Of a stretch of DNA of 64,000 nucleotides, positions 43,149-61,457 are shown piece after piece. The translations under genes were made by a program, and so were the position numbers. The stretch covers positions 1-64,000 of the forward strand of contig CAJTEX010000006.1 in the NCBI GenBank assembly GCA_910575615.1. Reading direction: 5' to 3'. Under the pieces are notes generated by a model. It was not told the origin of the DNA. It was given only the letters and a program-made list of their open reading frames with translations, and did not search any database. The stretch is from Bacteroidales bacterium (GTDB lineage Bacteria > Bacteroidota > Bacteroidia > Bacteroidales > Muribaculaceae). Numbering within the stretch: the first letter of the stretch is position 1; every line of letters begins with the position of its first letter.

Positions 43149-43483
43149 CCGGCAGTCCGGTGCGGAGGGGTGGGGCATCCGTTTTTTTTAGAAAAATTGG
43201 CCATATGGATAATTTCCCCGGTGTTTTTAACAATTGATTACTGAAAAATGCCTATCTTTGTAGCCGTAAAACCGCCCCGGAGGGGGCGCGGCTTTGCTCT
43301 TCTGATTACAGATTGTTGATAACCAGATGATAAGGTTGTGTCTTGTTGACAGGCTAATCGCTTTCCCCTTGTCTCTGATTTAGGCATCTCGGATCACCCC
43401 TACTAACCCTAAAGGTTGTCCATCGCGGCCCGCAGCCAGTTGATGGCGGCCACCACAGACCAGGAATCACAACAATATAGTTC
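43149..43483 (+). other. Non-coding region: nuo promoter and long leader
   Basis: 335 bases without a convincing gene. The perfect -7 box TATCTTTG lies at 43253-43260. A GC-rich hairpin (CGCCCC 43273-43278 with GGGGCG 43283-43288) lies a few bases after the implied start of transcription near 43267. The leader to nuoA is therefore about 215 bases. A small open frame from ATG 43443 to 43487 ends in an ATGA overlap with the nuoA start. No known riboswitch pattern was recognised. Confidence 0.6.
43253..43260 (+). promoter_or_regulatory. -7 element of the nuo/atp operon promoter
   Basis: TATCTTTG matches the Bacteroidetes -7 consensus TAnnTTTG. No TTTG is found at the ideal distance; ATTG at 43233-43236 lies 16 bases upstream and TTTTT at 43224-43228 lies 24 bases upstream. 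It is the only good promoter element before nuoA. Confidence 0.6.
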
Positions 43484-43861
43484 ATGATATCTTTAGGAAT
43501 TTTTGGCATCGACGCCGTAGTGTTCGCCATTGTGGCGCTGCTCACCGGAGCAGGGCTGGTATGGCTGGCCATGTGGCTCGCCGGCCTTATTTCTCCCCGC
43601 TCTTTCAATCCGCAGAAAGGTGAGGCATACGAGTGTGGTATCCCTACCCGCGGTGAATCAATGGCCCGCTTCCATGTGGGCTACTACCTGTTCGCCATCC
43701 TCTTCCTGATGTTCGACGTGGAAACAGTCTTCCTGTTCCCCTGGGCCGTGAAAATGCGCGCCCTCGGAGGTGAAGGCGTTCTCTGCGTCGCTGTTTTTTT
43801 CGCAATCTTAGTGCTGGGCCTCGTTTACGCCTGGCGGAAAGGAGCGCTTGAATGGAAATGA
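43484..43861 (+). CDS. nuoA: NADH-quinone oxidoreductase subunit A
   Basis: 125 residues with three membrane helices. It is part of the membrane arm of complex I near the quinone site. The conserved loop motif YECGIP (with Cys) and ARFHVGYYLFAILFLMFDVE (Asp and Glu in helix 2) are present. First gene of the complex I operon; its end overlaps nuoB by 10 bases. Confidence 0.95.
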   Translation: MISLGIFGIDAVVFAIVALLTGAGLVWLAMWLAGLISPRSFNPQKGEAYECGIPTRGESMARFHVGYYLFAILFLMFDVETVFLFPWAVKMRALGGEGVLCVAVFFAILVLGLVYAWRKGALEWK

Positions 43862-44481
43862 GACATGTGACCGCCCAGGGTATACCTTACGAGGCCTGGA
43901 AGGACAACGAATACATCGAGAAGCTCGTCACCGAGCTTCAGGAGTCGGGAACCAACGTGCTTGTCGGTTCGCTCGACAAACTTATCAACTGGGGGCGTTC
44001 AAACTCGCTCTGGCCGCTCACCTTCGCCACCAGTTGCTGCGGCATCGAATTCGTGTCGCTTGGAGCCGCCCGTTTTGACATGGCGCGATTCGGCTGGGAA
44101 GTTGCCCGTGCCTCGCCCCGCCAGGCCGACTTCATGATGGTGGCCGGTACCATCGTACACCGCATGGTGCCTGTGTTCCGCCGCCTCTATGACCAGCTCG
44201 CTGAGCCCAAATACGTCATAGCCTGCGGCTCGTGTGCCATCTCTGGCGGTCCGTTCCGCAAAAGCTACCATGTCGCCAAGGGCATCGAGGACATCGTGCC
44301 TGTCGACGTGTTCTGTCCCGGATGCCCCCCGCGCCCGGAGGCAATGATTTACTCGATCATGCAGCTCTCGCGCAAAATCAAGGTGGAACGCTTCTTCGGA
44401 GGCAAGAACCGCCAGGAGAGCCAGAAGGAATTTCTCGCCGCCCACCCCATCGAGGATGTCGCCGCGGCCAACATTGACTGA
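43852..44481 (+). CDS. nuoB: NADH-quinone oxidoreductase subunit B
   Basis: 209 residues. It carries the terminal iron-sulfur cluster N2 that passes electrons to quinone. The ligands are visible as Cys62, Cys63, Cys128 and Cys158 (TSCCGIEF, CGSCAISGG, CPGCPPRPE). The start at 43852 has AGGAG about 8 bases upstream; the second ATG at 43858 would give an ATGA overlap with nuoA but a worse ribosome-binding site spacing. The C-terminal 40 residues are longer than in many NuoB proteins. Confidence 0.96.
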   Translation: MEMRHVTAQGIPYEAWKDNEYIEKLVTELQESGTNVLVGSLDKLINWGRSNSLWPLTFATSCCGIEFVSLGAARFDMARFGWEVARASPRQADFMMVAGTIVHRMVPVFRRLYDQLAEPKYVIACGSCAISGGPFRKSYHVAKGIEDIVPVDVFCPGCPPRPEAMIYSIMQLSRKIKVERFFGGKNRQESQKEFLAAHPIEDVAAANID

Positions 44482-44501
44482 TAAACCATCATACGACATA
44501 C

Positions 44502-46124
44502 ATGGCTAACTTGCAGGAAAAAGTCTCGCGTCTCTTCCCCGAAGCTACCTTCGAGGAGGGCGAGATTTTGCTGGTGAACATCCCCGACGCAAAGCTTCAC
44601 GACCTTGTGAAGTCGCTCCGTGACGACTGCGGTTTCGACTATCTCGTGACCATCGTCGGTATGGACTGGGTGTCCTCCCTGGGATGTGTATATTATCTGA
44701 CTTCGTCGCTCTCAAAGGAGTTTGTCTCGGTAAAGGTGCAGACCACCGACCGCGACAATCCGATGATTCATTCCATTGCCGACCTTTACCGCATCGCCGG
44801 CATATATGAGCGCGAAGTCTATGACTTCTACGGGATTATCTTTATAAACAATCCCGATATGCGTCGCCTTTTCCTCAACATTGACTGGGTGGGTTACCCC
44901 CTCCGCAAGGATTACGACGCCAATCCTGAAATCAACCCCGTCTCGATTGAGAACGAACGCCAGACCGACCACACCGACTCTTGGGTGGAGCAGCCCGACG
45001 GCTCGATCAAGCATGAGCGCCCGAGGGTCTTCAAAGAGGATGACTTCGTGGTGAACATCGGCCCGCAGCATCCCGCCACTCACGGTGTGTTGCGTTTCCG
45101 CACCGCCGTCGATGGTGAGACCATCCAGAAAATCGATGTCTATATGGGCTATATCCATCGCGGAGTCGAGAAACTCTGTGAGGATCTGGGCTATATGCAG
45201 ACCCTCCATTTTATGGACCGTCTCGACTATTTCTCGGCCCACAATTACCACCACGGACTTTGCCTGGCGATTGAGAAAGCTGCCGGAATCGAGGTTCCGC
45301 GCCGCGCGCAGGTTATCCGCGTCATGATGGACGAGTTGTCGCGTATCGCCTCCCACTGCCTCTTCATCGGCACATTCTGCATGGACCTCGGCGCTACGAC
45401 GATGCTGTTCTACACATTGCGTGTGCGCGAGCAGGTGCTTGACATTATGGAGAAGACCTGCGGGGCGCGTATGACCTTCAACTACGACTGCCTCGGCGGC
45501 GTGATGGCCGACCTTCACCCCGATTTCGTCAAGGATGTCAAAGCCCTCCTCGAGGTGCTTCCCAAAAATGTCGCCGAATACAACAAGCTCTTCACCGGAA
45601 ACGTCATTGCCCACAACCGTCTCAAGAATGTCGGTGTCCTCTCCAACGAGGATGCCCGCTCCTGGGCCATCACCGGCCCGTCAGGCCGAGCATCAGGTTG
45701 GGCTTGTGATGTCCGCAAGACTCATCCATACAGCGTTTATTCCGAAATCAAGTTCGACCAGGTGGTGCGCACCGAGGGTGACTCCCTCGCCCGTTTCCAG
45801 AACCGTGTCGACGAGATTCTCCAGTCGAAGGGCATCCTCGAGCAGCTTCTCGAGATGCTTCCCGAAGGGGAATACTGCGCAAAAGTGCCCAAGGTGATCA
45901 AGCTTCCCGTCGGCCACTGGTTCCAGGTGGTTGAGGGATGTCGCGGCCTCTTCGGCGTGTACATCGAGAGTGACGGCTCGGCGAAGCCTTATCGCCTGAA
46001 ACTTGTCACTCCGGGTCTGCCCGCAGCCGCTGTGGTGGACCACATCACACGCGGACAGAAGATTGCCGACCTCATCACAATCGGAGGGTCGATGGATTAC
46101 ATCGTGCCCGACATGGACCGTTGA
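44502..46124 (+). CDS. nuoCD: NADH-quinone oxidoreductase, fused subunits C and D
   Basis: 540 residues. Residues 1-160 are NuoC-like (YEREVYDFYGIIFINNPDMRRLF). Residues from about 188 are NuoD-like (VNIGPQHPATHGVLRF, GYIHRGVEKLCE, and the C-terminal GGSMDYIVPDMDR). Together they form the quinone-reducing module with NuoB. The His and Tyr that line the quinone pocket (NIGPQHPATHG) are present. The fusion is known from several Bacteroidetes and enteric bacteria. Confidence 0.96.
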   Translation: MANLQEKVSRLFPEATFEEGEILLVNIPDAKLHDLVKSLRDDCGFDYLVTIVGMDWVSSLGCVYYLTSSLSKEFVSVKVQTTDRDNPMIHSIADLYRIAGIYEREVYDFYGIIFINNPDMRRLFLNIDWVGYPLRKDYDANPEINPVSIENERQTDHTDSWVEQPDGSIKHERPRVFKEDDFVVNIGPQHPATHGVLRFRTAVDGETIQKIDVYMGYIHRGVEKLCEDLGYMQTLHFMDRLDYFSAHNYHHGLCLAIEKAAGIEVPRRAQVIRVMMDELSRIASHCLFIGTFCMDLGATTMLFYTLRVREQVLDIMEKTCGARMTFNYDCLGGVMADLHPDFVKDVKALLEVLPKNVAEYNKLFTGNVIAHNRLKNVGVLSNEDARSWAITGPSGRASGWACDVRKTHPYSVYSEIKFDQVVRTEGDSLARFQNRVDEILQSKGILEQLLEMLPEGEYCAKVPKVIKLPVGHWFQVVEGCRGLFGVYIESDGSAKPYRLKLVTPGLPAAAVVDHITRGQKIADLITIGGSMDYIVPDMDR

Positions 46125-46189
46125 TCCAGACGACAGGAGAACCAACTTAGAAACCAAACAACCCCTGATATACAATCACGTTACTTGTC

Positions 46190-47296
46190 ATGAGTAATTA
46201 CACAATAGATAATTTCAGCAGCCTCGCGACCTGGTTCGACACGATGCTCAACGATTTCATGCCATCCTGGCTCGCGACCACCGTGGAGTGTGTGCTGGTC
46301 GGTGTCGGTCTGCTGCTGGTCTACTCTGTGCTGGCGCTCTTCTACATCCTCTACGAGCGTAAGATCTGTGCCTACTTCCAGTGTCGTCTCGGCCCCAACC
46401 GTGTCGGCCCCTGGGGGCTTCTCCAGAGTATCGCCGATATGTTCAAGATTCTCATCAAGGAGCTTATCGCCCTGAACCATATCGACAAGTTCCTTTTCGC
46501 CCTGGCTCCATACCTGGTGATTATCGCGTCAGTGCTCTGCTTCGCGGTGCTTCCCTGGGGCAACGGCTTGCAGATCATCGACTTCAACATCGGTATCTTC
46601 TTCCTGCTTGCCTGCTCCTCGATTGGTGTCCTGGGAATCCTGCTCGCAGGTTGGTCGTCAAACAACAAGTTCACCCTCATCGGTGCGCTACGTTCGGGTG
46701 CTCAGATGGTCAGCTATGAGCTTTCTGTCGGCCTCTCGATTCTCACGATGGTGGTTTTCGCAGGCACGATGGATGTGGCCAAGATTGTGGAGGCCCAGGC
46801 CGACCACTGGTTTATCTTCTCGGCCCATATTCCCGCCATCATCGCTTTCGTGATTTACATGATTGCGGGTACCGCCGAGACCAACCGTGGCCCCTTCGAC
46901 CTTCCTGAGGCCGAGAGCGAGCTTACTGCGGGATACCACACGGAGTATTCCGGTATCCATTTCGGATTCTTCTATCTTGCCGAATATCTCAACCTTTTCA
47001 TCGTCTCAGGTGTTGCTACATTGCTGTTCTTCGGAGGCTGGATGCCTTTCCGCGTCGCCGGCTGGGATGGCTTCAATGAGATCATGGGCTACATTCCCTC
47101 GGTGGTGTGGTTCCTCGGCAAGGCTTTCGTCATCTCTTTCATCATCATCTGGTTCAAGTGGACATACCCCCGTCTCCGTATCGACCAGCTGCTGACACTG
47201 GAGTGGAAATACCTCCTGCCCATCAACCTGGTAAACCTCGCCCTGATGGTCTGGATTGTGGTTGAAGGCTTCTATTTCGGCCAGCTCCCCCAGTAA
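46190..47296 (+). CDS. nuoH: NADH-quinone oxidoreductase subunit H
   Basis: 368 residues with about eight membrane helices. NuoH joins the quinone-reducing arm to the membrane arm. Motifs are [22 protein letters not shown] and [30 protein letters not shown], the latter with conserved acidic residues for proton coupling. It is followed 48 bases later by atpD rather than by nuoI, which is unusual. Confidence 0.96.
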
Positions 47297-48847
<1,551 letters not shown>

Positions 48848-48865
48848 CCATGTAGCAACCCTCCC

Positions 48866-48884
48866 GGGCGCGGCGCTCCCGCGC
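48866..48884 (+). other. GC-rich hairpin between atpD and atpC
   Basis: GGCGCGG (48866-48872) pairs perfectly with CCGCGCC (48878-48884) across a 5-base loop. No T-run follows, so it is not a classic terminator. It may set the ratio of atpD to the downstream genes by slowing 3' decay (inference). Confidence 0.6.
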
Positions 48885-48915
48885 CACGGGGTCAATATCT
48901 ATCGACAACTCAATT

Positions 48916-49149
48916 ATGGTTCTCAAGATAATTTCAGCCGAAAAAGTGCTTTTCGAGGGAGAGGCCTCCTCGGTCACCCTTCCCGGCGAGATGGGGCAGT
49001 TCACAGTGCTGCCGCGTCACGCGTCGCTGGTGTCGACCCTCGTCAAAGGTAAGATCAAGTATGCCGAAGGCTCGGGACACCATGAGATAGAAGTCGAAGG
49101 CGGAATTGTCGATGTCGACAACGATGTCGTTTCCGTTTGCATTTACTGA
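48916..49149 (+). CDS. atpC: ATP synthase F1 subunit epsilon, short form
   Basis: 77 residues. It contains only the N-terminal beta sandwich (VLFEGEASSVTLPGEMGQFTVLPRHASLVSTL). The C-terminal helical hairpin that inhibits ATP hydrolysis in E. coli is absent. Short epsilon subunits are common in this phylum. It ends 33 bases before atpB. Confidence 0.92.
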   Translation: MVLKIISAEKVLFEGEASSVTLPGEMGQFTVLPRHASLVSTLVKGKIKYAEGSGHHEIEVEGGIVDVDNDVVSVCIY

Positions 49150-49181
49150 CCGTTCAACAAGACAATCACCAGGCTTCCAAA

Positions 49182-50378
49182 ATGAAGAAGTTGCTTTTTA
49201 TACTGGTTCTGATGACAAGCTGGGCCGTCTCGGCCGCCCAGGAGAATGTCGCGCAGGACACCGCTTCGGTGGCGTCGGCCTGTCATGCCTCCTCCGTAGG
49301 CGGGGACAGGCTTGAAGAGGCCCTTGACAGGGCCGCCGAAGAGACCGACGAGCATAAGTTCGACATCAAGGAAACCATCTTCGAGCATCTCGGGGACGGT
49401 TACGGTTGGGAAGTGCCTTTCAACCACCACAAGCGTATCCCCCTCCCTGTGATAGTGTGGGGCAAGGACGGCCTCCATGTCTTCTCTTCATCGCGCGTGA
49501 CCCACGGCGACGAGTATGTTGATGGAGACGCTACTTTCAAAATCGCCACCGAAGGTGATTACAAAGGCAAAATCGTTGAGATAATCGATGGCAAGGAATA
49601 CAAGCCCTGGGATTTCTCGATTACAAAGAATGTCTGCGCCATCTTCATCGCCTGCATCGTGGTGCTGCTGTTACTCATACAGCTTGCACGCTGGCACAAG
49701 AAGAATCCCTTCAAGGCTCCCCGCAAAATGACCGGGGCCATAGAGGCCATCGTTGAGTTCATATACGCCGGTGTGATCAAGCCGACACTGAAAGAGAAGT
49801 CTGCCAAGTTCGCGCCTTACCTGCTTACGGCGTTCTTCTTCATCTTCTTTATGAACCTACTGGGACTCATCGTTGTCTTCCCCGGAGGTGCCAATGTGAC
49901 AGGCAATATCGCCGTGACTATGGTGCTTGCCATCATGACCTTTGTGATGACCAATGTGTTCGGCACCAAGGTCTACTGGAAGGAAATCTTCTGGCCTGAC
50001 GTTCCCATCTGGCTCAAGTGTCCGCTCCCCATCATGCAGCTCATAGAGGTGTTTGGCATCTTCACCAAGCCTGCGGCCCTTACAGTCCGTCTGTTCGCCA
50101 ACATGATGGGTGGCCATATGATTGTGTTGATTCTGACGTTGTTGATTTTCATCTTCGCCGGAGCCGGTGTGGCCATTGCGTCTGGCACCGCCGCGATTTC
50201 AGTGGCCTTCTCAGTCTTCATGCTTTTGATTGATGTGCTGGTGAGCTTCATCCAGGCATATGTCTTCACGATGCTCTCCACCATCTTCATCTCCCTTGCC
50301 CAGGCAGAGCATGAGGAGCATGGCGCTCACGGGGATGCCCATAGTGCAGCCGCGCATGCGTCGGAAACTTCAAAATGA
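49182..50378 (+). CDS. atpB: ATP synthase F0 subunit a, with N-terminal extracytoplasmic extension
   Basis: 398 residues. The open frame starts at 49137, but the ATG at 49182 gives a signal-peptide-like start (MKKLLFILVLMTSWAVSAAQ). About 130 soluble residues follow before the first membrane helix near residue 150. The essential Arg303 in AALTVRLFANMMGGH forms the proton path with the c subunit. The C-terminus is His/Glu/Ala-rich. Subunits a with such an N-terminal part are known in Bacteroidetes. Confidence 0.95.
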   Translation: MKKLLFILVLMTSWAVSAAQENVAQDTASVASACHASSVGGDRLEEALDRAAEETDEHKFDIKETIFEHLGDGYGWEVPFNHHKRIPLPVIVWGKDGLHVFSSSRVTHGDEYVDGDATFKIATEGDYKGKIVEIIDGKEYKPWDFSITKNVCAIFIACIVVLLLLIQLARWHKKNPFKAPRKMTGAIEAIVEFIYAGVIKPTLKEKSAKFAPYLLTAFFFIFFMNLLGLIVVFPGGANVTGNIAVTMVLAIMTFVMTNVFGTKVYWKEIFWPDVPIWLKCPLPIMQLIEVFGIFTKPAALTVRLFANMMGGHMIVLILTLLIFIFAGAGVAIASGTAAISVAFSVFMLLIDVLVSFIQAYVFTMLSTIFISLAQAEHEEHGAHGDAHSAAAHASETSK

Positions 50379-50423
50379 AATTAAAACAAAAGTTATAAAC
50401 CCCCAAAACAAAAACTCTTCGTT

Positions 50424-50669
50424 ATGTTAGCAATGATTTTAGCAGCAGTCGAGGCTCTTCTTGGCCTTGGTGCATCCGTAGCCGCCGGTATCGCCGCAAT
50501 CGCTGCCGGTATCGGTATCGGTAAGATTGGTGCTTCCGCCATGGAGGCCATCGCCCGCCAGCCTGAAGCTGCCGGCGACATCCGCTCGAACATGATTGTG
50601 ATTGCCGCTCTTATCGAAGGTGTGGCTCTGTTTGCGGTCATCGTCTGCATCCTCGCCCTGTTCGTATAA
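50424..50669 (+). CDS. atpE: ATP synthase F0 subunit c
   Basis: 81 residues forming two membrane helices with the polar loop ARQPEA. The ion-binding Glu65 lies in AALIEGVALFA. The surrounding residues do not show the Ser/Thr-rich pattern of sodium-binding c subunits, so a proton-driven ring is likely. A 124-base gap with a strong hairpin follows, the largest gap within the atp genes. Confidence 0.96.
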   Translation: MLAMILAAVEALLGLGASVAAGIAAIAAGIGIGKIGASAMEAIARQPEAAGDIRSNMIVIAALIEGVALFAVIVCILALFV

Positions 50670-50679
50670 ACCTTGCTGA

Positions 50680-50710
50680 CCGGGGAGGCATCCTCGCGGT
50701 GTCTTCCCGG
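50680..50710 (+). promoter_or_regulatory. Intercistronic hairpin after atpE
   Basis: The arms 50680-50691 and 50699-50710 pair over 12 positions, including three G-U pairs, with a 7-base loop. There is no T-run. It begins 11 bases after the atpE stop. A stable structure at this place could protect the atpE message and help supply the excess of c subunits needed for the ring (inference). Confidence 0.65.
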
Positions 50711-50793
50711 CCAAAGCTTGATTATTGTCGGGGGCCGTCCGGCTCCCGATGCAAAACAAATGCTTAACCCTTAACAATGAGGTTGTTTTAACT

Positions 50794-51291
50794 ATGGAAC
50801 TTTTCAAAGTTGATTTTGGCTTGACCATCTGGATGTTTGTGGCTTTCGCCATCCTGTTTTTCATCCTGTGGAAATTCGCCTGGCCTGCCATCATGAAGGG
50901 CATTGACGGGCGTGCCGACCTTATAGACAAGGGTGTTGAGTATGCTCAGAACGCCAAGGAACAGCTTGACAACGCCCAGCTTGAGGCTGACCGCCAGATT
51001 CAGGAGGCCCGCCGCAAGGAGGCTGACATCATCGCCGAAGCCAACCGTATGAAATCACAAATCATAGAGGACGCCCGCGAGGAAGCCAAGAAGGAGGCAC
51101 AGAAAGAGAAGGATGCCGCCAAGCTTTCAATCGAGCAGAGCCGCCGGGAGGCTGAGCAGAACCTGCGCGACGAGGTCAGCCGCGTCGCCCTGGAGATTGC
51201 CGGCAAGGTCACCCGCGGACAGCTTTCAGACGATGCTGCCCAGAAAAAGCTGGTCAACAGCTACCTTGATGAAATTGAAAGTCAGAACTGA
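50794..51291 (+). CDS. atpF: ATP synthase F0 subunit b
   Basis: 165 residues. The frame opens at 50725, but the ATG at 50794 (MELFKVDFGLTIW) is the family start. One membrane helix (about 8-28) is followed by a long charged coiled coil (KEADIIAEANRMKSQIIEDA), the peripheral stalk of the enzyme. It lies 33 bases before atpH. Confidence 0.94.
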   Translation: MELFKVDFGLTIWMFVAFAILFFILWKFAWPAIMKGIDGRADLIDKGVEYAQNAKEQLDNAQLEADRQIQEARRKEADIIAEANRMKSQIIEDAREEAKKEAQKEKDAAKLSIEQSRREAEQNLRDEVSRVALEIAGKVTRGQLSDDAAQKKLVNSYLDEIESQN

Positions 51292-51324: not shown

Positions 51325-51891
51325 ATGAACGAAGGTTTGATTCCCAAACGCTACGCAAAGGCCCTTTACAAGTTTGCTTGTGAGAAAGGGGTCGACCAGG
51401 GACTTTACCGTCTCATGGGCAACCTCGGTAGGAGTTTTGCCGACAATCCTGCCCTGGATTCGACTGTCGCAAACCCTTTCGTGGGTGACGATGACAAAAT
51501 CGCCCTGCTTAAGACCGCAGCCACCGGAGCGGCCGACACCACCGACAAGAAAGCCGGCGATGTCTATGCCGACTTCCTCAAGCTGCTCCGTGAGAACAAG
51601 CGCCTGCCTATGGCCGGAGCCATCTCCCGCGCCTATTGCGACATCTACCGCAAGGAGAACAGAATCTATCGGGTGGCGGTTGTCTCGGCCAAGCCGCTCG
51701 ACACTCCCGAGCAGCACCGGTTGTTGAAGCTAATCGAGGGACACCTCGATGGCGGGAAGATGGAACACTCTTTCTCGACCGACCCGGAGCTGATCGGCGG
51801 TTTCACGGTCGACATTGACAACGAGCGTCTCGACGCCTCGGTAAAGAACGAACTTAAACAATTGCGATTGAAGCTTTTGAAGCAGGCTTGA
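51325..51891 (+). CDS. atpH: ATP synthase F1 subunit delta
   Basis: 188 residues. It links the peripheral stalk to the top of F1. The helical N-terminal domain ([17 protein letters not shown]) and the C-terminal signature [25 protein letters not shown] are clear. It lies between atpF and atpA, the normal order. Confidence 0.94.
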
Positions 51892-51934: not shown

Positions 51935-53509
<1,575 letters not shown>

Positions 53510-53581: not shown

Positions 53582-54454
53582 ATGGCAACATTAAGAGAAC
53601 TCAAAGGCAGAATCGGCTCGGTGGCTTCTTCCGAGAAAATCACCGGCGCCATGAAGATGATTTCGTCGGCGAAAATGCATAAGGCCGAGGGCGCGTTGCG
53701 CCAGCTGCGTCCCTACCGCGACCAGGTGGAGACTATCATCGGCAACCTGCTCGCCTCCGACGCGGCTTTTGATTCGCCGCTGATGACCCCCCGCGACACT
53801 ATCGGTCGCGTGGCAGTGGTTGTGTGGGGTTCCGACGATGGCCTTTGTGGAGCCTACAACATAAACATCTTCAAACAGCTGGTCGCCAGAATCAACGGCT
53901 ACCGCGAGGAGTTTGGCGACGATGTGCGTGTCACGGTCATCCCTGTCGGTGCCAAGATGGCGAAGGCAGCCGCGAAAATTAAAGGTGTCGACATACAGCG
54001 CCCGCAGGGAGTCGATTCAAAGACTACCGAGGTGCGCGACTTCACCTGGATGCTGCGCGACGGTTTCCTCTCCGGCGAGTTTGACCGCGTCGATGTCCTC
54101 TATATGTCATACAAGTCGGTCAGCCGCCAGCGTCTGGAGTCGGCCGAGCTTCTGCCCGTGACCACGGCAGCGTTTGCCGCTGTGGAGGGAGAGGTGTCGG
54201 CCAAGCCCTACATCTTCGAGCCTTCTGCCGACGCCATCTTCAACAAGGTGTTGCCGATGTACCTGCTTGCCGTTGTCCAGGACATCTTCACCGAGAACCG
54301 CGCCAGCGAGCAGGCTGCCCGAGTGATGGCCATGCAAAGCGCCAACGACAACGCCAAGAAGCTCCACGAACAGTTGCAGCTTGAGTTCAACAAACTTCGC
54401 CAGCAGGCTATCACCACCGAATTGCTCGACATTCTCGGCGGCCAGGTGAAGTAA
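53582..54454 (+). CDS. atpG: ATP synthase F1 subunit gamma
   Basis: 290 residues. It is the rotor shaft. The N-terminal helix (MATLRELKGRIGSVASSEKITGAM as LKGRIGSVASSEKITGAMKM) and the C-terminal helix with MQSANDNAKKLHEQLQ and TTELLDILGG are typical. It is the last atp gene and is followed 46 bases later by nuoI. Confidence 0.95.
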   Translation: MATLRELKGRIGSVASSEKITGAMKMISSAKMHKAEGALRQLRPYRDQVETIIGNLLASDAAFDSPLMTPRDTIGRVAVVVWGSDDGLCGAYNINIFKQLVARINGYREEFGDDVRVTVIPVGAKMAKAAAKIKGVDIQRPQGVDSKTTEVRDFTWMLRDGFLSGEFDRVDVLYMSYKSVSRQRLESAELLPVTTAAFAAVEGEVSAKPYIFEPSADAIFNKVLPMYLLAVVQDIFTENRASEQAARVMAMQSANDNAKKLHEQLQLEFNKLRQQAITTELLDILGGQVK

Positions 54455-54500
54455 CCTCCAAGAATAATAACAGACATTATCATATCGCTTAAAAAACAAT

Positions 54501-55346
54501 ATGGGTAGTATTAAAGATTATTTTTCAGGTCTGGGAAAAGGAGTGACCAGCCTTGTCAAAGGTCTGCAAGTGACCGGCAAGGAGTTTGTCACCCCAAAGA
54601 TCACTGAGAAATATCCCGACAACCGCGAGGACATGCACATCGCCCAGCGATTCCGCGCAACCCTCCAGTTCATTTATGACAATGAGGGAAACCACAAGTG
54701 CATCGCTTGCGGGACATGCGAGAGGAACTGTCCTAACGGCACGATCTCCATCGAGACAAAGATGGTAGACACCTGGGACGGAAAGAAGAAGAAAAAACTC
54801 GACCGTTATACCTACGATCTCGGCAGCTGCACCTTCTGTCAGTTGTGTGTGCAGACCTGTCCTACGAACGCGCTCGAGTTCAGCAACGATTTCGAGCAGG
54901 CTGTGTTCACCCGCTCCAAGCTCGTGAAACAGCTCAACTACCTCCCTGAGAAGCCCGAGCCCAAGCCTACACCCGAGCAGATAGCAAAGTTCGAGGCTGA
55001 GAAGCAAGCCAAGCTTGAGGCCGCAAAAGCTGCCGCTGCCAAGAAAGCCGCCGCTGCCGAGGCTCCCGCCACCATCGAGCTTGACGAGAAGGCCAAGAAG
55101 GCCCTTGCTGCCGCCGAGGCCACCGGAGACCCTGAGAAAATCGCCAAGGTGAGAGCAGCCCTCGAAAAGGCCGCAAAGCTCAAGGCCGCTCAGGCGCCGG
55201 CCGCTCCCGCTGCCATCGAGCTTGACGAAAAGGCCAAGAAGGCCCTCGCCGCCGCCGAGGCCACCGGAGACCCTGAGAAAATCGCTAAAGTCAAGGCCGC
55301 CCTTGAAAAGGCTGCAAAACTCAAGGCCGAGAAAGGCAACGCCTGA
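54501..55346 (+). CDS. nuoI: NADH-quinone oxidoreductase subunit I with repeat tail
   Basis: 281 residues. NuoI carries clusters N6a and N6b. Ligands are Cys67, 70, 73, 77 (CIACGTCERNCP) and Cys110, 113, 116, 120 (CTFCQLCVQTCP). The domain ends near residue 146. The rest, about 135 residues, is a Pro-rich linker and an Ala/Lys/Glu-rich tail with two near-identical 47-residue units. Such a tail is absent from ordinary NuoI (about 150-180 residues). The tail should be helical and may bind a partner or the membrane surface. The gene restarts the nuo series after the atp block. Confidence 0.94.
   Translation: MGSIKDYFSGLGKGVTSLVKGLQVTGKEFVTPKITEKYPDNREDMHIAQRFRATLQFIYDNEGNHKCIACGTCERNCPNGTISIETKMVDTWDGKKKKKLDRYTYDLGSCTFCQLCVQTCPTNALEFSNDFEQAVFTRSKLVKQLNYLPEKPEPKPTPEQIAKFEAEKQAKLEAAKAAAAKKAAAAEAPATIELDEKAKKALAAAEATGDPEKIAKVRAALEKAAKLKAAQAPAAPAAIELDEKAKKALAAAEATGDPEKIAKVKAALEKAAKLKAEKGNA
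55062..55343 (+). repeat. Two 141-bp repeats in the nuoI tail
   Basis: Units lie at 55062-55202 and 55203-55343, each 47 codons. Both contain IELDEKAKKALAAAEATGD followed by a PEKIAK segment and an ALEKAAKLKA end. The DNA is nearly identical with a few silent changes, indicating a recent duplication. Confidence 0.92.
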
Positions 55347-55392
55347 CCCTCCACGGGCCCACAAACCAATCAGAAAAAAGTAAAAAAATAAT

Positions 55393-55911
55393 ATGGAATC
55401 AGTAGGAAGTATCATCGTTTATGTGGTAATCGCTCTGACGATTGTCATCTGCTCGGTGCTTGCTGTCACCACGCGCAAGATTCTGCGCGCCGCGACCTAC
55501 CTGCTCTTCACCCTCTTCGCCACTGCCGCCCTTTACTTCAAGCTCGACTACGAGTTCCTGGGCGCTGTGCAGATTGCGGTGTACGCGGGCGGTATCGTGG
55601 TTCTGTTCGTCTTCTCAATTCTCCTGACGAGCCACCCCGGCGACAACAGTGCCAAACTTGCCTCCAGAAAGCGCGCGCTCGGGCTTACCGGGTCGCTGTT
55701 GCTCCTGATTGTCGCAGGTTACTCCCTTGTAAGCCGCTGCGAGCTGTGGTCGGCCCTCCCCCAGGGAGAGAATCCTTCAATGAATGAAATCGGCGAGACC
55801 CTGATGGGTACGGCCCATGGCCAGTATCTCCTCCCATTCGAGGCAATCAGCGTGTTGTTGCTCGCCTGTATAATCGGTGGTGTGGTAGTCGCCCGCAAAA
55901 ACAAAAATTAA
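55393..55911 (+). CDS. nuoJ: NADH-quinone oxidoreductase subunit J
   Basis: 172 residues with about five membrane helices. The conserved region YLLFTLFATAALYFKLDYEF and QIAVYAGGIVVLFVFSILL (third helix with the pi-bulge Gly and Tyr) is clear. It follows nuoI by 46 bases. Confidence 0.94.
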   Translation: MESVGSIIVYVVIALTIVICSVLAVTTRKILRAATYLLFTLFATAALYFKLDYEFLGAVQIAVYAGGIVVLFVFSILLTSHPGDNSAKLASRKRALGLTGSLLLLIVAGYSLVSRCELWSALPQGENPSMNEIGETLMGTAHGQYLLPFEAISVLLLACIIGGVVVARKNKN

Positions 55912-55922
55912 ACCCCGCGAAT

Positions 55923-56234
55923 ATGGAACTTACAATCCTCTGGTATCTGATTCCGAGCCTGTTGATGTTCTGCTGCGGCGTTTATGGCTTCATCACCCGC
56001 AAGAATATGATCGCGATGCTCATCTCCCTGGAGCTGATGCTCAACGCGGTCGACATCAACTTCGTTGTCTTCAACCGATTCCTCTTCCCCGGGGAGCTTG
56101 AGGGCATGTTCTTCACCCTGTTCGCCATCGCCCTGGCCGCAGCCGAGACCGCGCTGGCAATCGCCATCATCATCAATGTCTTCCGTGTCTCCGAGAAGAT
56201 TGATGTCGACGATGTAACTAAAATGAAATTCTAA
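55923..56234 (+). CDS. nuoK: NADH-quinone oxidoreductase subunit K
   Basis: 103 residues with three membrane helices. The conserved Glu in helix 2 (ISLELMLNAVDINFV) and Glu in helix 3 (AAAETALAIAI) for proton transfer are present. It is 11 bases after nuoJ and 8 bases before nuoL. Confidence 0.95.
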   Translation: MELTILWYLIPSLLMFCCGVYGFITRKNMIAMLISLELMLNAVDINFVVFNRFLFPGELEGMFFTLFAIALAAAETALAIAIIINVFRVSEKIDVDDVTKMKF

Positions 56235-56242
56235 GCACCGAT

Positions 56243-58273
56243 ATGGAACCTGTAATACCTATCATTATCCTGGCTTTGCCCCTGACGATGTTCCTGGTGC
56301 TGGGACTTTTAGGCCACAAGATGGCCCACCGCACCGCAGGCATCCTCGGCACTCTCAGCATGGGAGTGACAATGGTGCTGGCCTACATCACAACGCTAAC
56401 CTATTTCTTCTCGGGTTCGTCCGAGTTCATCAATGAAGAGGGTGTGCGCCTGCAGAGCGTCATCTTCAACTGGGACTGGCTGGCCTTCACCGATTCGCTG
56501 GTCATCCGTCTCGGATTCCTCCTCGACCCCATCTCAGCCCTGCTGCTTGTGGTGATCACCACCATCTCCTTTATGGTGCATCTTTACAGCAACGGCTACA
56601 TGCGCGACCATCACGGAGTATGGGAGACCGGATTCCAGCGTTTCTACGCATTCCTGTCTCTGTTCAGCTTCTCGATGCTCGGCCTGGTGGTGGCCACCAA
56701 CATCTTCCAGATGTACATCTTCTGGGAGCTTGTGGGTGCCTCATCATACCTGCTCATCGGGTTCTACTACACCAAACCCTCCGCGGTGTCCGCTTCAAAG
56801 AAAGCATTCATCGTCACCCGTTTCGCCGACCTTGGCTTCCTGATTGGAATCCTCGTGCTGAGCTTCTACACCGGCACATTCGATTTCACCAACTTTACTT
56901 CGACCGGAGTTGAAGGCATGGCCAATGTCTACCAGGTAGACCTCACCACCGCTGAAGGCATCCGCAACTGGATTGCCAGCTCTCCAGCTCCTGTATTCAT
57001 GGGCGGCTCGGTGCTGACATGGGCCCTGGTTCTCATCTTTATGGGCGGTATGGGTAAATCAGCGATGATGCCCCTCCATATCTGGCTCCCTGACGCTATG
57101 GAAGGCCCGACCCCTGTGTCGGCCCTCATCCATGCCGCTACCATGGTTGTCGCAGGCGTGTTCCTCGTGGCCCGTCTCTTCCCCCTCTACCTGATGGAGG
57201 AGGTCGCCCTCAACATCATCACGGTGGTCGGCGCGCTGACCGCTTTCTATGCCGCGATGGTGGCATGCGTACAGGTCGACATCAAGCGAGTACTCGCTTT
57301 CTCGACCATATCCCAGATCGCGTTCATGATGGTTTCGCTCGGCGTTGCCCGTCCGGAGTTCCATCACGGCCTGGGCTATATGGCGGCGATGTTCCACCTC
57401 TTCACCCACGCCATGTTCAAGGCCCTGCTCTTCCTTTGCGCCGGTGCCCTGATTCACGCCATCGGTTCCAACGACTACACAGACATGCACGGCCTGCGCA
57501 AGCATATGCCTGTCACCCATGTGACATTCTTGATTGGCTGTCTCGCAATCGCCGGCATCATCCCCTTCGCCGGGTTCTTCTCTAAAGATGAGATTCTTAC
57601 AGCCGTCTTCGGCCAGTCGATTTTCTGGTATATATGGATGTCGGCGGTAGCCGGTCTGACAGCCTTCTATATGTTCCGCCTCTACTACCTGATTTTCTGG
57701 TGGAAGGAACACAAGACGCCCGAAGGTCATCACGCTCCCCACGACCAGCTTTGGACTATGACCCTCCCCTTGGTCATCCTCGCTGTTGTCTCTTGCGTGG
57801 CCGGGTTTGTGCCTTTCGGTAATCTTGTCACCTGGAATGGTCATCCGATGTTCGAGTCGGTCAACTTCTTCACCAACCTTGGCGCGCTTGACTGGAGCGT
57901 GGCTGCCATCAGCCTCGCGGTCGCCATCCTGGCCATCATCCTGGCAACCGTCATGTACAAGAAGGAAAACCCCCTGCCCGCCAAGATGAGGAGCGCGCTG
58001 CCCCGCCTCTGGGACTGGTGCTACCACCGCTTCTACTGGGACGAGCTTTACATGTTCATCACCCACAAGATCATCTTCGGCTGCATCTCCCGTCCCATCG
58101 CCTGGTTTGACCGTCACGTCATCGACGGCTCGATGGACGGAATGGCCTGGGTGACCCAGCGTATCTCGTTTGCCATCCGTGGCCTCCAGTCGGGCAATAT
58201 CCAGCTGTATGTCTGGATTTACCTCGTCGGAGTCATCCTGCTTGGCGCGATAACCGCCGTCTGCCTACTCTGA
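56243..58273 (+). CDS. nuoL: NADH-quinone oxidoreductase subunit L
   Basis: 676 residues with about 16 membrane helices. It is the distal antiporter-like proton pump. Motifs include YIFWELVGASSYLLIG (helix-5 Glu), GGMGKSAMMPLHIWLPDAMEGPTPVSALIHAATMV (helix-7 Lys and broken helix, given here as GKSAMMPLHIWLPDAM) and the long lateral helix with DRHVID at the C-terminus. Confidence 0.96.
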   Translation: MEPVIPIIILALPLTMFLVLGLLGHKMAHRTAGILGTLSMGVTMVLAYITTLTYFFSGSSEFINEEGVRLQSVIFNWDWLAFTDSLVIRLGFLLDPISALLLVVITTISFMVHLYSNGYMRDHHGVWETGFQRFYAFLSLFSFSMLGLVVATNIFQMYIFWELVGASSYLLIGFYYTKPSAVSASKKAFIVTRFADLGFLIGILVLSFYTGTFDFTNFTSTGVEGMANVYQVDLTTAEGIRNWIASSPAPVFMGGSVLTWALVLIFMGGMGKSAMMPLHIWLPDAMEGPTPVSALIHAATMVVAGVFLVARLFPLYLMEEVALNIITVVGALTAFYAAMVACVQVDIKRVLAFSTISQIAFMMVSLGVARPEFHHGLGYMAAMFHLFTHAMFKALLFLCAGALIHAIGSNDYTDMHGLRKHMPVTHVTFLIGCLAIAGIIPFAGFFSKDEILTAVFGQSIFWYIWMSAVAGLTAFYMFRLYYLIFWWKEHKTPEGHHAPHDQLWTMTLPLVILAVVSCVAGFVPFGNLVTWNGHPMFESVNFFTNLGALDWSVAAISLAVAILAIILATVMYKKENPLPAKMRSALPRLWDWCYHRFYWDELYMFITHKIIFGCISRPIAWFDRHVIDGSMDGMAWVTQRISFAIRGLQSGNIQLYVWIYLVGVILLGAITAVCLL

Positions 58274-58332
58274 CCGGCAGCCCCCGAGACCTTACAGTGA
58301 AAATATAGTATCATAGAAATACAGAAACAGAG

Positions 58333-59850
58333 ATGTTTTCAAACCTTCTGATTTACTTCGTGGTGATTCCTCTGCTGATGCTGGCCGGTTTCGCCATCTG
58401 CAAAAACATCAGGCAGGTCCGCACGGTCGCCGTGGCCGGTTCGATTCTGCTGGTGGGCCTGAGCGTGTGGGTCCTCTGCGACTACCTCGCCCTTCGCGCG
58501 GCAGGCAACATGGAGGAGATGCTGTTCCGTGGAGACTGGACCTGGTTCGCTCCGCTCAACATCAAGCTTTCCGTCGGAGTCGACGGAGTCTCCATCGCGA
58601 TGCTCATACTCTCCTCGATAATCGTTTTCGCCGGTTCTTTCGCATCATGGAAGATTGACGACGCGCGCCACTTCTTCATGTGGCTCATCCTGCTTTCCAC
58701 TGGTGTCTACGGATTCTTCATCTGCATCGACCTCTTCACGATGTTCATGTTCTACGAGGTAGCCCTCATCCCGATGTATCTTCTCATCGGAGTCTGGGGC
58801 ACCGGACGCAAGGAATATTCGGCGATGAAGCTCACCCTGATGCTGATGGGCGGTTCCGCCTTCCTTATGCTCAGCCTCATCGGTATCTATTACCACTCCG
58901 CGCCCGAGGGACAGGCCCTTACCTGGAACATCATCGATATCGCACGCAACGTCGAGGAGACACAGTGTATCTCCAAAGGCTGGCAGTATTTCCTCTTCCC
59001 TATGTGCTTTGTCGGCTTCGGTGTCCTCGGCGCCATGTTCCCCTTCCATACCTGGAGCCCCGACGGTCATGCCTGTGCCCCGACCGCCGTGTCGATGCTC
59101 CATGCTGGTGTGCTTATGAAGCTGGGTGGTTACGGATGCTTCCGTGTGGCCATGTACCTCATGCCGCAGGCTGCCAATGACCTCGCCTGGATTTTCCTTA
59201 TCCTGACCGGCATCTCGGTTGTCTACGGAGCATTCTCGGCCTGCGTCCAGACCGACCTCAAATACATCAACGCCTACTCCTCGGTAAGCCACTGCGGCAT
59301 GGTGCTGTTCGCTATCCTGATGATCAACACCACCGCCCTCACCGGCGCGATCATGCAGATGCTTTCCCACGGTCTGATGACGGCCCTGTTCTTTGCCCTC
59401 ATCGGTATGATTTACGGACGTACCCACACCCGTGACATCCGCCTGATGGGTGGTCTGATGAAGATTCTTCCCTTCCTCGGAGTCGGCTATGTGATTGCCG
59501 GTATGGCTTCGCTCGGTCTGCCCGGTCTCTCGGGCTTCGTGGCCGAGATGACCATCTTCGTCGGATCGTTTGAGCATACAGACATGTTCCACCGTGTGTT
59601 CACCATCGTGGCCTGCTGCTCGATTGTGATTACCGCCGTCTACATCCTCCGCACAGTCGGCAAACTGCTCTTCGGCCCGGTGCTGGATCCCCATCACGCC
59701 GAGCTGACCGACGCCAGCTGGTGGGAACGCCTGTCGACCATCACACTCATCCTCAGCGTGGCCGCCATCGGCTGTTTCCCCAACTTCTTCGAGAGCCTTA
59801 TTCGTTTCACCTTCAGCCCCGAAATATTCCGCGCCATCGGCCTCAACTGA
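58333..59850 (+). CDS. nuoM: NADH-quinone oxidoreductase subunit M
   Basis: 505 residues with about 14 membrane helices. An antiporter-like proton pump subunit. FMFYEVALIPMYLLIGVWG holds the helix-5 Glu, and FPFHTWSPDGHACAPTAVSM the loop after helix 7. It lies 59 bases after nuoL and 44 bases before nuoN. Confidence 0.95.
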   Translation: MFSNLLIYFVVIPLLMLAGFAICKNIRQVRTVAVAGSILLVGLSVWVLCDYLALRAAGNMEEMLFRGDWTWFAPLNIKLSVGVDGVSIAMLILSSIIVFAGSFASWKIDDARHFFMWLILLSTGVYGFFICIDLFTMFMFYEVALIPMYLLIGVWGTGRKEYSAMKLTLMLMGGSAFLMLSLIGIYYHSAPEGQALTWNIIDIARNVEETQCISKGWQYFLFPMCFVGFGVLGAMFPFHTWSPDGHACAPTAVSMLHAGVLMKLGGYGCFRVAMYLMPQAANDLAWIFLILTGISVVYGAFSACVQTDLKYINAYSSVSHCGMVLFAILMINTTALTGAIMQMLSHGLMTALFFALIGMIYGRTHTRDIRLMGGLMKILPFLGVGYVIAGMASLGLPGLSGFVAEMTIFVGSFEHTDMFHRVFTIVACCSIVITAVYILRTVGKLLFGPVLDPHHAELTDASWWERLSTITLILSVAAIGCFPNFFESLIRFTFSPEIFRAIGLN

Positions 59851-59894
59851 TACGGTTGACAAACCCTTGAAACGGAAGAAATCAATTCTGTCAC

Positions 59895-61364
59895 ATGGAT
59901 TACTCTCAATTTTTGGCAATGAAACAGGAAATCGCCCTGCTTGTGGTGTTCCTGTTGGTATTCCTCTACGATACGTTCATGCCCCGCAAGGCCCTGGGCG
60001 CCACCTCGGCTGTGACCTCAGTGCTGTTTCTCCTATTCACCGTGTGGAGCTTCATCTGGGGCGGCACGGCAGACTCAGTCGAGGCATTCGCCGGGATGTA
60101 TGTCACCTCCCCCGTATGCGCGCTGATAAAAAACATCCTCAATGTCGGTGTGCTGATTGTGCTCGTGCAGGCCACCTCATGGGTCAACTCAGATTCCCAG
60201 CTTGTGCGCCGCGGGGAATATTACGAGCTTCTGCTGGTGACCCTCTTCGGAATGTACCTGATGATTTCGGCACGCCACTTCCTCTTGTTCCTAATCGGCC
60301 TTGAATCCGCGTCGCTCCCCCTGGCTGCGATGGTTGCGTTTGACAAGCACCGTTATGAGAGCCACGAGGCTGCCGTCAAATACCTGCTGACCGCCGTGTT
60401 CTCCTCAGCGATTTTCATGATGGGCCTCTCATTTGTCTATGGCCTGTCGGGCTCGCTCTACTTCGAGGACATCGCCATGCAGCTTGGCTCGCAGGGCGAC
60501 GCGATGCTCATCATAGCCCTCGCGTTTGTGGTCTCCGGTATCGGTTTCAAGCTCTCGCTTGTGCCCTTCCATCTCTGGACCGCCGATGTCTACCAAGGTG
60601 CGCCCACCCCTGTCACCTCCTATCTCTCGGTGATTTCAAAAGGAGCAGCCGCCTTTGCTTTCCTGATTATCCTCGTTCAGGCCTTTGGCCAGTTCTACAG
60701 CCAGGTTTGGGAATGGATGCTCTACGCCCTGATTATCGCCACCATCACCATCGGTAACCTCTTTGCCATCCGTCAGCGCAACATGAAGCGCTTCCTGGCG
60801 TTCTCCTCCATCTCACAGGCCGGCTACATCATGCTCGGAGTGGTGGGATGCAACGAGATGGGCCTGGCCGCGATGATGTATTACATCCTTGTCTACATCT
60901 TCTCCAACCTCGCCGCCTTCGGTGTCATCGGCGCAATCGAGAACAAGACAGGCATGGTTGAGATGACCGACTACAACGGCCTCTCTAAGACCAACCCCTG
61001 GCTCTCATTCTCGATGACCCTCGCGATGTTCTCCCTGGCCGGTATCCCCCCCTTCGCAGGCTTCTTCAGCAAGTTCTTCATCTTCACATCTGCCATCAAC
61101 CAAGGCTCAATCGCCATCTATGTGCTGGTGCTTATCGCCTTGATCAACACAATCATCTCCCTCTACTACTACCTGCTGGTCGTGAAGGCAATGTACATCT
61201 CTCCCGAAGAACCCCGCATAGCGACATTCCGCTCCACATGCAGTGAGCGCGCAAGCCTGTGGGTGACCGTTCTCGGAATCATCCTGCTCGGTATCGTAAG
61301 CTACTTCTATGACACCATCTTCAACACCGTTGCCCTGTCAGACATCTTCGGCTTCATTGCCTGA
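59895..61364 (+). CDS. nuoN: NADH-quinone oxidoreductase subunit N
   Basis: 489 residues with about 14 membrane helices. The third antiporter-like subunit. The helix-5 region (FLLFLIGLESASLPLAAM) and SLVPFHLWTADVYQGAPTPV with KRFLAFSSISQAGYIMLG are typical. It is the last gene of the operon and is followed by a strong terminator. Confidence 0.95.
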   Translation: MDYSQFLAMKQEIALLVVFLLVFLYDTFMPRKALGATSAVTSVLFLLFTVWSFIWGGTADSVEAFAGMYVTSPVCALIKNILNVGVLIVLVQATSWVNSDSQLVRRGEYYELLLVTLFGMYLMISARHFLLFLIGLESASLPLAAMVAFDKHRYESHEAAVKYLLTAVFSSAIFMMGLSFVYGLSGSLYFEDIAMQLGSQGDAMLIIALAFVVSGIGFKLSLVPFHLWTADVYQGAPTPVTSYLSVISKGAAAFAFLIILVQAFGQFYSQVWEWMLYALIIATITIGNLFAIRQRNMKRFLAFSSISQAGYIMLGVVGCNEMGLAAMMYYILVYIFSNLAAFGVIGAIENKTGMVEMTDYNGLSKTNPWLSFSMTLAMFSLAGIPPFAGFFSKFFIFTSAINQGSIAIYVLVLIALINTIISLYYYLLVVKAMYISPEEPRIATFRSTCSERASLWVTVLGIILLGIVSYFYDTIFNTVALSDIFGFIA

Positions 61365-61421
61365 TAGCCACGTCATAGCTTGTTGACAATCCTGAAAATA
61401 GTCACTTTCTCATAATTGACG

Positions 61422-61457
61422 ACTACGGAATCTGCCTGAGGGAGATTCCGTAGTTTT
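61422..61457 (+). terminator. Rho-independent terminator of the nuo/atp operon
   Basis: ACTACGGAATCT (61422-61433) pairs perfectly over 12 bases with AGATTCCGTAGT (61443-61454) across a 9-base loop and is followed by TTTT. It lies 57 bases after the nuoN stop. Confidence 0.9.

What the first reader, a model, noticed from the sequence alone, without database searches (positions are those of the whole stretch)
43253..61457. Complete ATP synthase operon embedded inside the complex I operon
The gene order is nuoA-B-CD-H, then atpD-C-B-E-F-H-A-G, then nuoI-J-K-L-M-N, all on one strand. The two junctions are only 48 and 46 bases wide. There is a good promoter element only before nuoA and a clear terminator only after nuoN, so the proton pump and ATP synthase could be made from one transcript of about 18 kb. 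In the bacteria I know, the nuo and atp clusters are separate. The break point lies between the H and I subunits, which belong to different modules of complex I. NuoE, NuoF and NuoG are missing, so the electron donor may be a ferredoxin or flavodoxin rather than NADH.
Basis: partly seen in the sequence, partly recalled or inferred. Interest (0 to 1): 0.75.

Follow-up and report, generated by a model that had tools for sequence, protein, structure and literature searches.

The report
ATP synthase operon inside complex I operon
A group of gut bacteria keeps all the genes of its ATP-making enzyme in the middle of the genes of a membrane proton pump, an arrangement briefly reported in 2016 that, in the genomes sampled here, looks as if it arose once and was then inherited by at least seven related families.

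Summary
Window 43484-61364 holds nuoA-B-CD-H, atpD-C-B-E-F-H-A-G, nuoI-J-K-L-M-N on one strand, with 48- and 46-base junctions.

It is not an assembly join. In the window's family 81 of 99 genomes show nuoH-atpG-nuoJ in order on one contig. Seventeen others have markers on different contigs or missing; the last has a scaffold gap inside the repetitive tail of NuoI.

The arrangement is already in print: Ormerod et al. [quoted passage not shown]

New here is extent and history. Seven families of the order have it (18 of 132 full-length NuoH copies); 105 copies in 55 other families are uninterrupted. The embedded rows form one branch in nuo and atp trees, and in an rpoB tree without f88: one fusion, inherited vertically.

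Best reading: a headless 11-subunit complex I (donor unknown, perhaps ferredoxin or flavodoxin) and a predicted H+-driven ATP synthase, probably on one ~18 kb transcript. The single transcript is inferred, not shown.

The parts
43253..43260 (+). promoter-like -7 element TATCTTTG (Bacteroidetes consensus TAnnTTTG, recalled); a leader of about 220 nt follows
   Evidence: sequence; -33 element weak, best 8 of 10
43484..43861 (+). nuoA
   Evidence: Pfam PF00507 1.7e-34
43852..44481 (+). nuoB; cysteines 62, 63, 128, 158 fit the N2 cluster ligands (assignment recalled)
   Evidence: NF011391 6.1e-103, over cut-off; cysteines
44502..46124 (+). nuoCD (fused)
   Evidence: PF00329 and PF00346; NF004739 over cut-off
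46190..47296 (+). nuoH; only PF00146 match in this genome
   Evidence: NF004741 7.3e-100, over cut-off
47297..47344 (+). junction nuoH-atpD, 48 nt, no terminator-like site, no stable fold
47345..48847 (+). atpD (beta), Walker A GGAGVGKT at 155
   Evidence: TIGR01039 5.9e-233
48916..49149 (+). atpC (epsilon), 77 aa, beta-sandwich domain only
   Evidence: PF02823 2.5e-20
49137..50378 (+). atpB (a subunit); called start is TTG and overlaps atpC, an ATG at 49182 is likelier
   Evidence: PF00119 2.3e-55; sequence
50424..50669 (+). atpE (c subunit), carboxylate in ALIEGVAL; Na+ ligands not seen by comparison with a recalled Na+-type c subunit
   Evidence: TIGR01260 over cut-off
50725..51291 (+). atpF (b); start codon uncertain (most relatives 165 aa)
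   Evidence: TIGR01144 over cut-off
51325..51891 (+). atpH (delta)
   Evidence: TIGR01145 over cut-off
51935..53509 (+). atpA (alpha)
   Evidence: TIGR00962 3.7e-223
53582..54454 (+). atpG (gamma)
   Evidence: PF00231 8.8e-77; TIGR01146 over cut-off
54455..54500 (+). junction atpG-nuoI, 46 nt, no terminator-like site, no stable fold
54501..55346 (+). nuoI, 281 aa: 8 cysteines fit for two 4Fe-4S clusters, then an Ala/Lys/Glu-rich repeat tail (about residues 150-281)
   Evidence: Fer4; TIGR01971 below cut-off; C67,70,73,77,110,113,116,120 invariant in 36 sequences; repeats; model
55393..55911 (+). nuoJ
   Evidence: PF00499 3.9e-35
55923..56234 (+). nuoK
   Evidence: PF00420 3.4e-25; NF004320 over cut-off
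56243..58273 (+). nuoL
   Evidence: NF005141 3.9e-176, over cut-off
58333..59850 (+). nuoM
   Evidence: TIGR01972 1.5e-117, over cut-off
59895..61364 (+). nuoN
   Evidence: TIGR01770 1.2e-112, over cut-off
61423..61457 (+). terminator-like hairpin: 11-bp stem, 9-nt loop, TTTT
   Evidence: sequence; fold z -6.0; not listed by the scan

Best explanation
This is a real, old, vertically inherited fused gene cluster. In the stem of a clade of Bacteroidales (the window's family, probably Muribaculaceae, and at least six other families) the resident F1Fo ATP synthase operon moved, once, into the gap between nuoH and nuoI of the resident 11-subunit ('headless') complex I operon. In these families no gap-free contig seen here shows the two apart. 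Both enzymes look intact. Inferred function: reduced ferredoxin or flavodoxin (or another non-NADH donor) feeds the Fe-S clusters of NuoI and NuoB, menaquinone is reduced, the membrane arm pumps protons, and the H+-type ATP synthase encoded in the same transcription unit uses them. Co-transcription from the nuoA promoter to the nuoN terminator would tie supply of pump and turbine. Shown: gene content, order, conservation, single origin in the sampled trees, no NuoF in the genome. Inferred: single transcript, donor, coupling ion, benefit.
For: Gene identities. 81 of 99 family genomes with both junctions spanned on one contig. 76 of 76 named loci that reach 150 bp past nuoH have atpD next; 56 of 56 that reach 300 bp past atpG have nuoI (55 by script; L011 by eye). 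Seven families embedded, 55 uninterrupted; gene content read in 11 loci of the six other families. Embedded rows are one side of a branch in the nuo tree (24 of 36 rows, SH-aLRT 100), the atp tree (24 of 39, 87) and the rpoB tree (14 of 29, 100/99; family f88 missing there because G185 gave no rpoB match). Terminator after nuoN, unstructured junctions. B. fragilis NUO, also without NuoEFG, has no NADH activity (PMC7002350, passages).
Against: No expression data. B. fragilis nuo, which stands alone, is reported as poorly expressed in rich medium (PMC7002350, passage), while ATP synthase is usually needed steadily; one shared promoter would tie both unless there are internal promoters or differential translation. 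Internal promoters are not excluded: atpD has the third highest mean promoter-like score of 15 genes, and two sigma-70-type sites lie just before nuoH. Support for the embedded group in the atp tree is only 87, and f106 inside it next to f88 is not rejected (AU p 0.11). Families other than the window's are unnamed. Donor and ion were not tested.
Confidence: 0.72

Rival explanations
1. The fusion is a neutral relocation: the atp block landed between two nuo genes, brought or gained its own promoter inside the 3' end of nuoH, and is kept together only because most breaks would be harmful. Pump and ATP synthase are regulated separately. (Odds raised from 0.30 to 0.33, and those of the best explanation lowered from 0.75 to 0.72, after the atpD scores were looked at again.)
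For: The mean promoter-like score before atpD (7.19) is the third highest of 15 genes, though only 2 of 90 loci reach 9 of 10. Different demand for the two enzymes is suggested by poor nuo expression in B. fragilis (PMC7002350, passage).
Against: nuoI scores like the inner genes (mean 6.37); no terminator-like site at the end of nuoH; spacing stays short over 90 and 67 loci.
Confidence: 0.33
2. Assembly or binning artefact joining two operons.
For: Two named loci (L005, L031) break next to nuoI, and the window's genome is in 89 contigs.
Against: 81 of 99 family genomes agree, among them the single-contig G092 and G057 in 3 contigs; six further families agree, G354 on one 3.44-Mb contig. The two breaks sit at runs of N inside the NuoI tail.
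Confidence: 0.01
3. Several independent insertions, or spread of the fused cluster by horizontal transfer.
For: Family f106 (one genome, G203) has Atp proteins that join the embedded group (100), while its Nuo proteins do not (AU p 0.00018) and its rpoB lies outside: at least one atp transfer near this clade is likely.
Against: Same break point and gene order in the seven families; embedded rows form one group in the nuo, atp and rpoB trees (no f88 row in the last).
Confidence: 0.05

Closest known systems
Complex I-ATP synthase locus of family S24-7 / 'Ca. Homeothermaceae' (Ormerod et al. 2016, PMC4936053)
   Same: Same family by inference; F-type ATP synthase (26 of 30 genomes) integrated in the locus of an 11-of-14-subunit complex I without NuoEFG (passage read).
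   Different: The passages read give no break point, junctions, other families or origin.
NUO of Bacteroides fragilis (PMC7002350)
   Same: Complex I without NuoEFG; no NADH oxidation; unknown donor (passages).
   Different: nuo is one run of ten locus tags (BF638R_0850-0841), so uninterrupted; that the ATP synthase lies elsewhere is inferred from those tags.
Headless NDH-I of Prevotella (PMC6560451)
   Same: 11 subunits; NuoEFG not detected by mass spectrometry in P. bryantii (passages).
   Different: No embedding mentioned in the passages read; a Mrp-like antiporter role is considered there.
[quoted passage not shown]
   Same: nuoABCDHIJKLMN operon without nuoEFG; ferredoxin proposed as donor (passages).
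   Different: Different phylum; operon written there without an insert.

Membership tests
11-subunit (headless) complex I | NuoA, B, C, D, H, I, J, K, L, M, N all present | tested here: met
   (C and D fused; NuoI's TIGR01971 match is below its cut-off)
11-subunit (headless) complex I | No NuoE/F/G module | tested here: met
   None in the operon; no NuoF C-terminal domain PF10589 in the genome. NuoE and NuoG not searched genome-wide.
11-subunit (headless) complex I | Ligands of N6a, N6b and N2 Fe-S clusters kept | tested here: met
   8 NuoI cysteines invariant in 36 sequences; NuoB C62, C63, C128, C158; assignment to clusters recalled
11-subunit (headless) complex I | Reduces menaquinone with a non-NADH donor and pumps H+ | not testable with these tools
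   needs biochemistry
F1Fo (F-type) ATP synthase | Eight subunit genes a, b, c, alpha, beta, gamma, delta, epsilon | tested here: met
   epsilon short (77 aa; 79-90 aa in the 8 full outgroup copies)
F1Fo (F-type) ATP synthase | Walker A in alpha and beta, carboxylate in c | tested here: met
F1Fo (F-type) ATP synthase | Coupling ion H+ rather than Na+ | tested here: inconclusive
   c subunit lacks the Na+ ligands of a recalled Na+-type sequence, compared by eye; no assay
Single operon | Same strand, short gaps, one promoter, one terminator | tested here: inconclusive
   strand, gaps and terminator met; internal promoters not excluded
Single operon | One continuous transcript | not testable with these tools
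   needs RNA

The most novel reading that the evidence does not exclude
The fusion is a functional 'energy operon': one transcript sets the pump-to-turbine ratio, nascent Nuo and Atp membrane subunits are made side by side and assemble in the same membrane patch, and the repeat tail carried by NuoI in most members of the window's family is a docking arm for the missing electron-input partner. It may also lock complex I into the genome: all 20 genomes sampled from the seven embedded families keep a full-length NuoH, against 88 of 257 from the rest of the order sample (counted by hand; membership of unlisted genomes inferred from the sampling order; not corrected for kinship).
Probability: 0.12. 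Interest if true: 0.7.

Novelty: already known. Interest (0 to 1): 0.36.

Why it matters
Complex I and ATP synthase are the classic pump and turbine, and their operons are usually apart (recalled; and 55 of 62 families resolved here have an uninterrupted nuo cluster). A clade that seems to have kept them in one cluster since before seven families split offers a natural test of whether co-transcription matters for bioenergetic stoichiometry. It also raises a sharp question for the headless complex I, whose donor is unknown: in B. fragilis its operon is reported to be poorly expressed in rich medium, but here it would have to be expressed whenever ATP synthase is, unless internal promoters exist. 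The 2016 passage gave no history; the extent and single origin seen here make the question testable.

Tried and rejected
Assembly join: rejected. A real split in G007 (nuoJ 1 Mb away, opposite strand): first noted as a natural exception, then rejected, because the NuoI tail on one side and the sequence before nuoJ on the other both meet runs of N; G007 and L031 lie on contigs of the same length, 1,585,627. L005 breaks in the same way. The other 17 incomplete family genomes were not looked at for N runs.

Order count: NuoH rows weaker than 1e-110 were left out before the count; these are mostly hydrogenase-like but include two fragments, G155:C783 and G136:C156. NuoJ rows weaker than 1e-28 were also left out. 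Nine NuoH copies stayed unresolved; at least two of them (G250:C352, G338:C112) would be short gaps with the weaker NuoJ rows.

Independent insertions: rejected on the trees. Trees are quick ones; twelve of the 13 rows of the window's family lack nuoM and nuoN (cut by the flank). In the first rpoB tree the row for G210 was a wrong reading frame; rows were picked anew by shared 4-mers. The AU test on rpoB did not finish and was not repeated. The AU test for f106 next to f88 in the atp tree does not reject (p 0.11), so the place of f106 at the base of the embedded atp group is unsure.

Phylum survey: place lists were cut, so only 148 NuoH rows (G000 and G261 left out) and 150 NuoJ rows were compared: 28 gaps of 620-1287 nt, none of 3-30 kb, 87 with the listed NuoJ elsewhere, 33 with none listed. 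No second case seen, but this is weak.

Internal promoters: the scan uses a recalled consensus and rings upstream of nuoB, inside coding sequence, in 11 of 86; treated as weak either way. Rfam: two sub-threshold mir-980 matches to an inverted repeat after nuoN, taken as chance. Pfam on three of the small genes between atpC and atpB of outgroups: no match over cut-off. A fold search with the NuoI model was not run. Paper searches for this arrangement; passages were read in PMC4936053, PMC7002350, PMC6560451 and PMC11238625 only, the other papers were seen as listings. Among these only PMC4936053 describes it.
Full report
WHAT IS THERE. The window carries 18 genes on the + strand between 43484 and 61364: nuoA, B, CD, H; atpD, C, B, E, F, H, A, G; nuoI, J, K, L, M, N (ORFs; profiles). 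The two junctions are 48 and 46 nt. A -7 promoter element TATCTTTG lies at 43253-43260 (the consensus is recalled), its -33 partner is poor. An 11-bp hairpin with TTTT lies at 61423-61457; the stretch folds far better than shuffles (z -6.0). The junctions do not fold (z about +1). A sigma-70-type scan finds more sites than shuffles do (17 against 9.8, sd 3.3), two of them just before nuoH and none in the two junctions.

ARE THE ENZYMES INTACT? NuoB and NuoI keep the cysteines of their Fe-S clusters (assignment recalled), the beta subunit keeps GGAGVGKT, the alpha subunit GDRQIGKT and the c subunit its glutamate. The c subunit lacks the Na+ ligands of Na+-type c rings (comparison recalled, by eye), so H+ is the likelier ion. 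NuoF's last domain (PF10589) is absent from the genome, which is 99.75% complete; in the family it is over cut-off in 5 of 99 genomes, all of genus g18, with one weaker match in G037. NuoE and NuoG were not searched for. PF00146 (NuoH) has one match in the genome.

IS IT AN ASSEMBLY JOIN? No. In 99 genomes of the window's family NuoH (98 found), gamma (96) and NuoJ (97) were placed. In 81 all three lie in order on one contig and strand, with NuoH to gamma 5.8-6.6 kb and gamma to NuoJ 0.6-1.2 kb. Of the other 18, 17 have a marker on another contig or missing. The last, G007, seemed to have nuoJ 1 Mb away on the other strand. Its contig has the same length as that of named locus L031; there NuoI runs into a stretch of N, and the sequence before nuoJ is the rest of a NuoI tail next to a stretch of N: a scaffold misjoin. 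Of 80 named loci (the best 80 of 349 relatives found), 76 reach 150 bp past nuoH and all 76 have atpD next; 56 reach 300 bp past atpG and all have nuoI (55 by script; L011 by eye); 55 reach 500 bp past nuoI and 53 have nuoJ, the two misses (L005, L031) being N runs in the NuoI tail.

HOW FAR DOES IT REACH? In 277 genomes of the order, 108 hold 132 full-length NuoH copies; weaker matches, mostly hydrogenase-like but including two fragments, were left out before this count. NuoJ lies 7.2-8.2 kb downstream in 18 copies from 7 families (f1, f22, f28, f60, f68, f88, f109), 0.5-1.06 kb downstream in 105 copies from 55 families, and was not placed for 9. No family has both states. Gamma lies inside the long gap, and 11 loci read from the six other families show the same 18-gene order. 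In 296 genomes of the phylum no second case was seen, but the lists were cut. Family codes are unnamed. The window's family is taken to be Muribaculaceae because its NuoH relatives at about 81% identity include Duncaniella muris and Paramuribaculum intestinale.

HOW OFTEN DID IT ARISE? Trees of eight concatenated Nuo proteins (36 rows), six Atp proteins (39 rows) and RpoB (29 rows) each put all embedded rows on one side of a branch (support 100; 87; 100/99). The rpoB tree has no row of f88, for which no rpoB match was found. The nuo and atp trees agree on the order of the families inside (f88 first; f60, f28 and f68 together; f22, f109 and f1 together). One fusion followed by vertical descent explains this. 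Family f106 (one genome, G203) is odd: its Atp proteins join the embedded group (100; a place next to f88 is not rejected, p 0.11), its Nuo proteins do not (AU p 0.00018), and its RpoB lies outside a well-supported group of 22 rows that holds the embedded ones. Its atp and nuo operons face each other about 11.4 kb apart on one contig. A transfer of the atp operon between f106 and the base of the embedded clade is the simplest reading; whether the closeness of the two operons is a trace of a pre-fusion stage is open. A gene for a small hydrophobic protein between atpC and atpB in seven outgroup loci is absent from the four embedded loci checked, from f106 and from f9.

HOW IT PROBABLY WORKS. 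The spacing at the two junctions (medians 48 and 46 nt over 90 and 67 loci) is like that between genes within each operon (medians -10 to 51). Together with the terminator at the end and none between, this favours one transcript of about 18 kb. It is not shown, and the promoter-like scores are mixed: atpD has the third highest mean of 15 genes. In B. fragilis the stand-alone nuo operon was judged poorly expressed in rich medium, and its loss gave no colonization defect in mice (PMC7002350, passages). A shared promoter would change the picture for Muribaculaceae: either Nuo is made whenever ATP synthase is, or internal promoters exist. The donor of the headless complex is unknown; ferredoxin is proposed for Desulfitobacterium (PMC11238625, passages). 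NADH is probably handled by NQR, which Ormerod et al. found in 27 of 30 genomes of this family (passage).

WHAT IS KNOWN. Ormerod et al. 2016 (PMC4936053; [quoted passage not shown] one genome, H5, lacks both. So the arrangement itself is published. Eight paper searches, seen as listings apart from the four papers named in this report, showed no other description of it; subscription papers are mostly not held.

A SIDE FINDING. In most members of the window's family NuoI has a C-terminal tail (167-335 aa in 54 full sequences, median 213), which is short or absent elsewhere (146-169 aa in 23). In the window it holds two copies of a 127-nt unit, 89% identical, starting 141 nt apart, each predicted as a helical hairpin after one long helix (AlphaFold2: mean pLDDT 77, pTM 0.40, hairpin blocks 79-96). 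It breaks assemblies (above). Its place on the subunit that would meet the missing NADH module makes a docking role conceivable; that is speculation.

VERDICT. Real, conserved, correctly described, already in print in one passage; extended here by extent, single origin and removal of the apparent exception.

Noticed in passing
window 54930-55346 (end of nuoI): Ala/Lys/Glu-rich repeat tail on NuoI: 54 full sequences of the window's family are 167-335 aa (median 213) against 146-169 aa in 23 from other families; two 127-nt repeats in the window, predicted helical hairpins.
   Followed up: partly
L031 / L120 / L121 (G007) and L005: MAG scaffolds carry runs of N inside the NuoI tail; in G007 the parts of the operon are joined to unrelated sequence, so apparent splits at nuoI|nuoJ in public MAGs can be misjoins.
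   Followed up: yes
L093 and L102 (G203, family f106): ATP synthase close to the embedded type but nuo and rpoB not; the two operons face each other about 11.4 kb apart on one contig.
   Followed up: partly
L105, L106, L108, L110-L113, between atpC and atpB: A gene for a small hydrophobic protein of 119-146 aa (no Pfam match over cut-off in the three tested) that is absent from the four embedded loci checked, f106 and f9.
   Followed up: partly
window 48916-49149: Epsilon subunit is only 77 aa and lacks the C-terminal helical domain known from other bacteria (recalled); short in the 8 full outgroup copies too (79-90 aa).
   Followed up: partly
window 61468-61546: Imperfect long inverted repeat just after the nuoN terminator; sub-threshold mir-980 matches on both strands, probably chance.
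   Followed up: no
G017, G040, G060, G079, G095 (genus g18): Only genus of the family sample with a PF10589 domain over cut-off (open frames of 639-663 aa), perhaps a NuoF- or HydB-like protein.
   Followed up: no
window 34700-40528 and 40525-42114: A 1942-aa alpha-2-macroglobulin-like protein followed directly by a GHL10 glycosyl-hydrolase-like protein.
   Followed up: no
L053, L005: Record titles 'Paenibacillus sp.' and 'Alistipes timonensis' on MAG contigs that carry this family's operon: probably mislabelled records.
   Followed up: no
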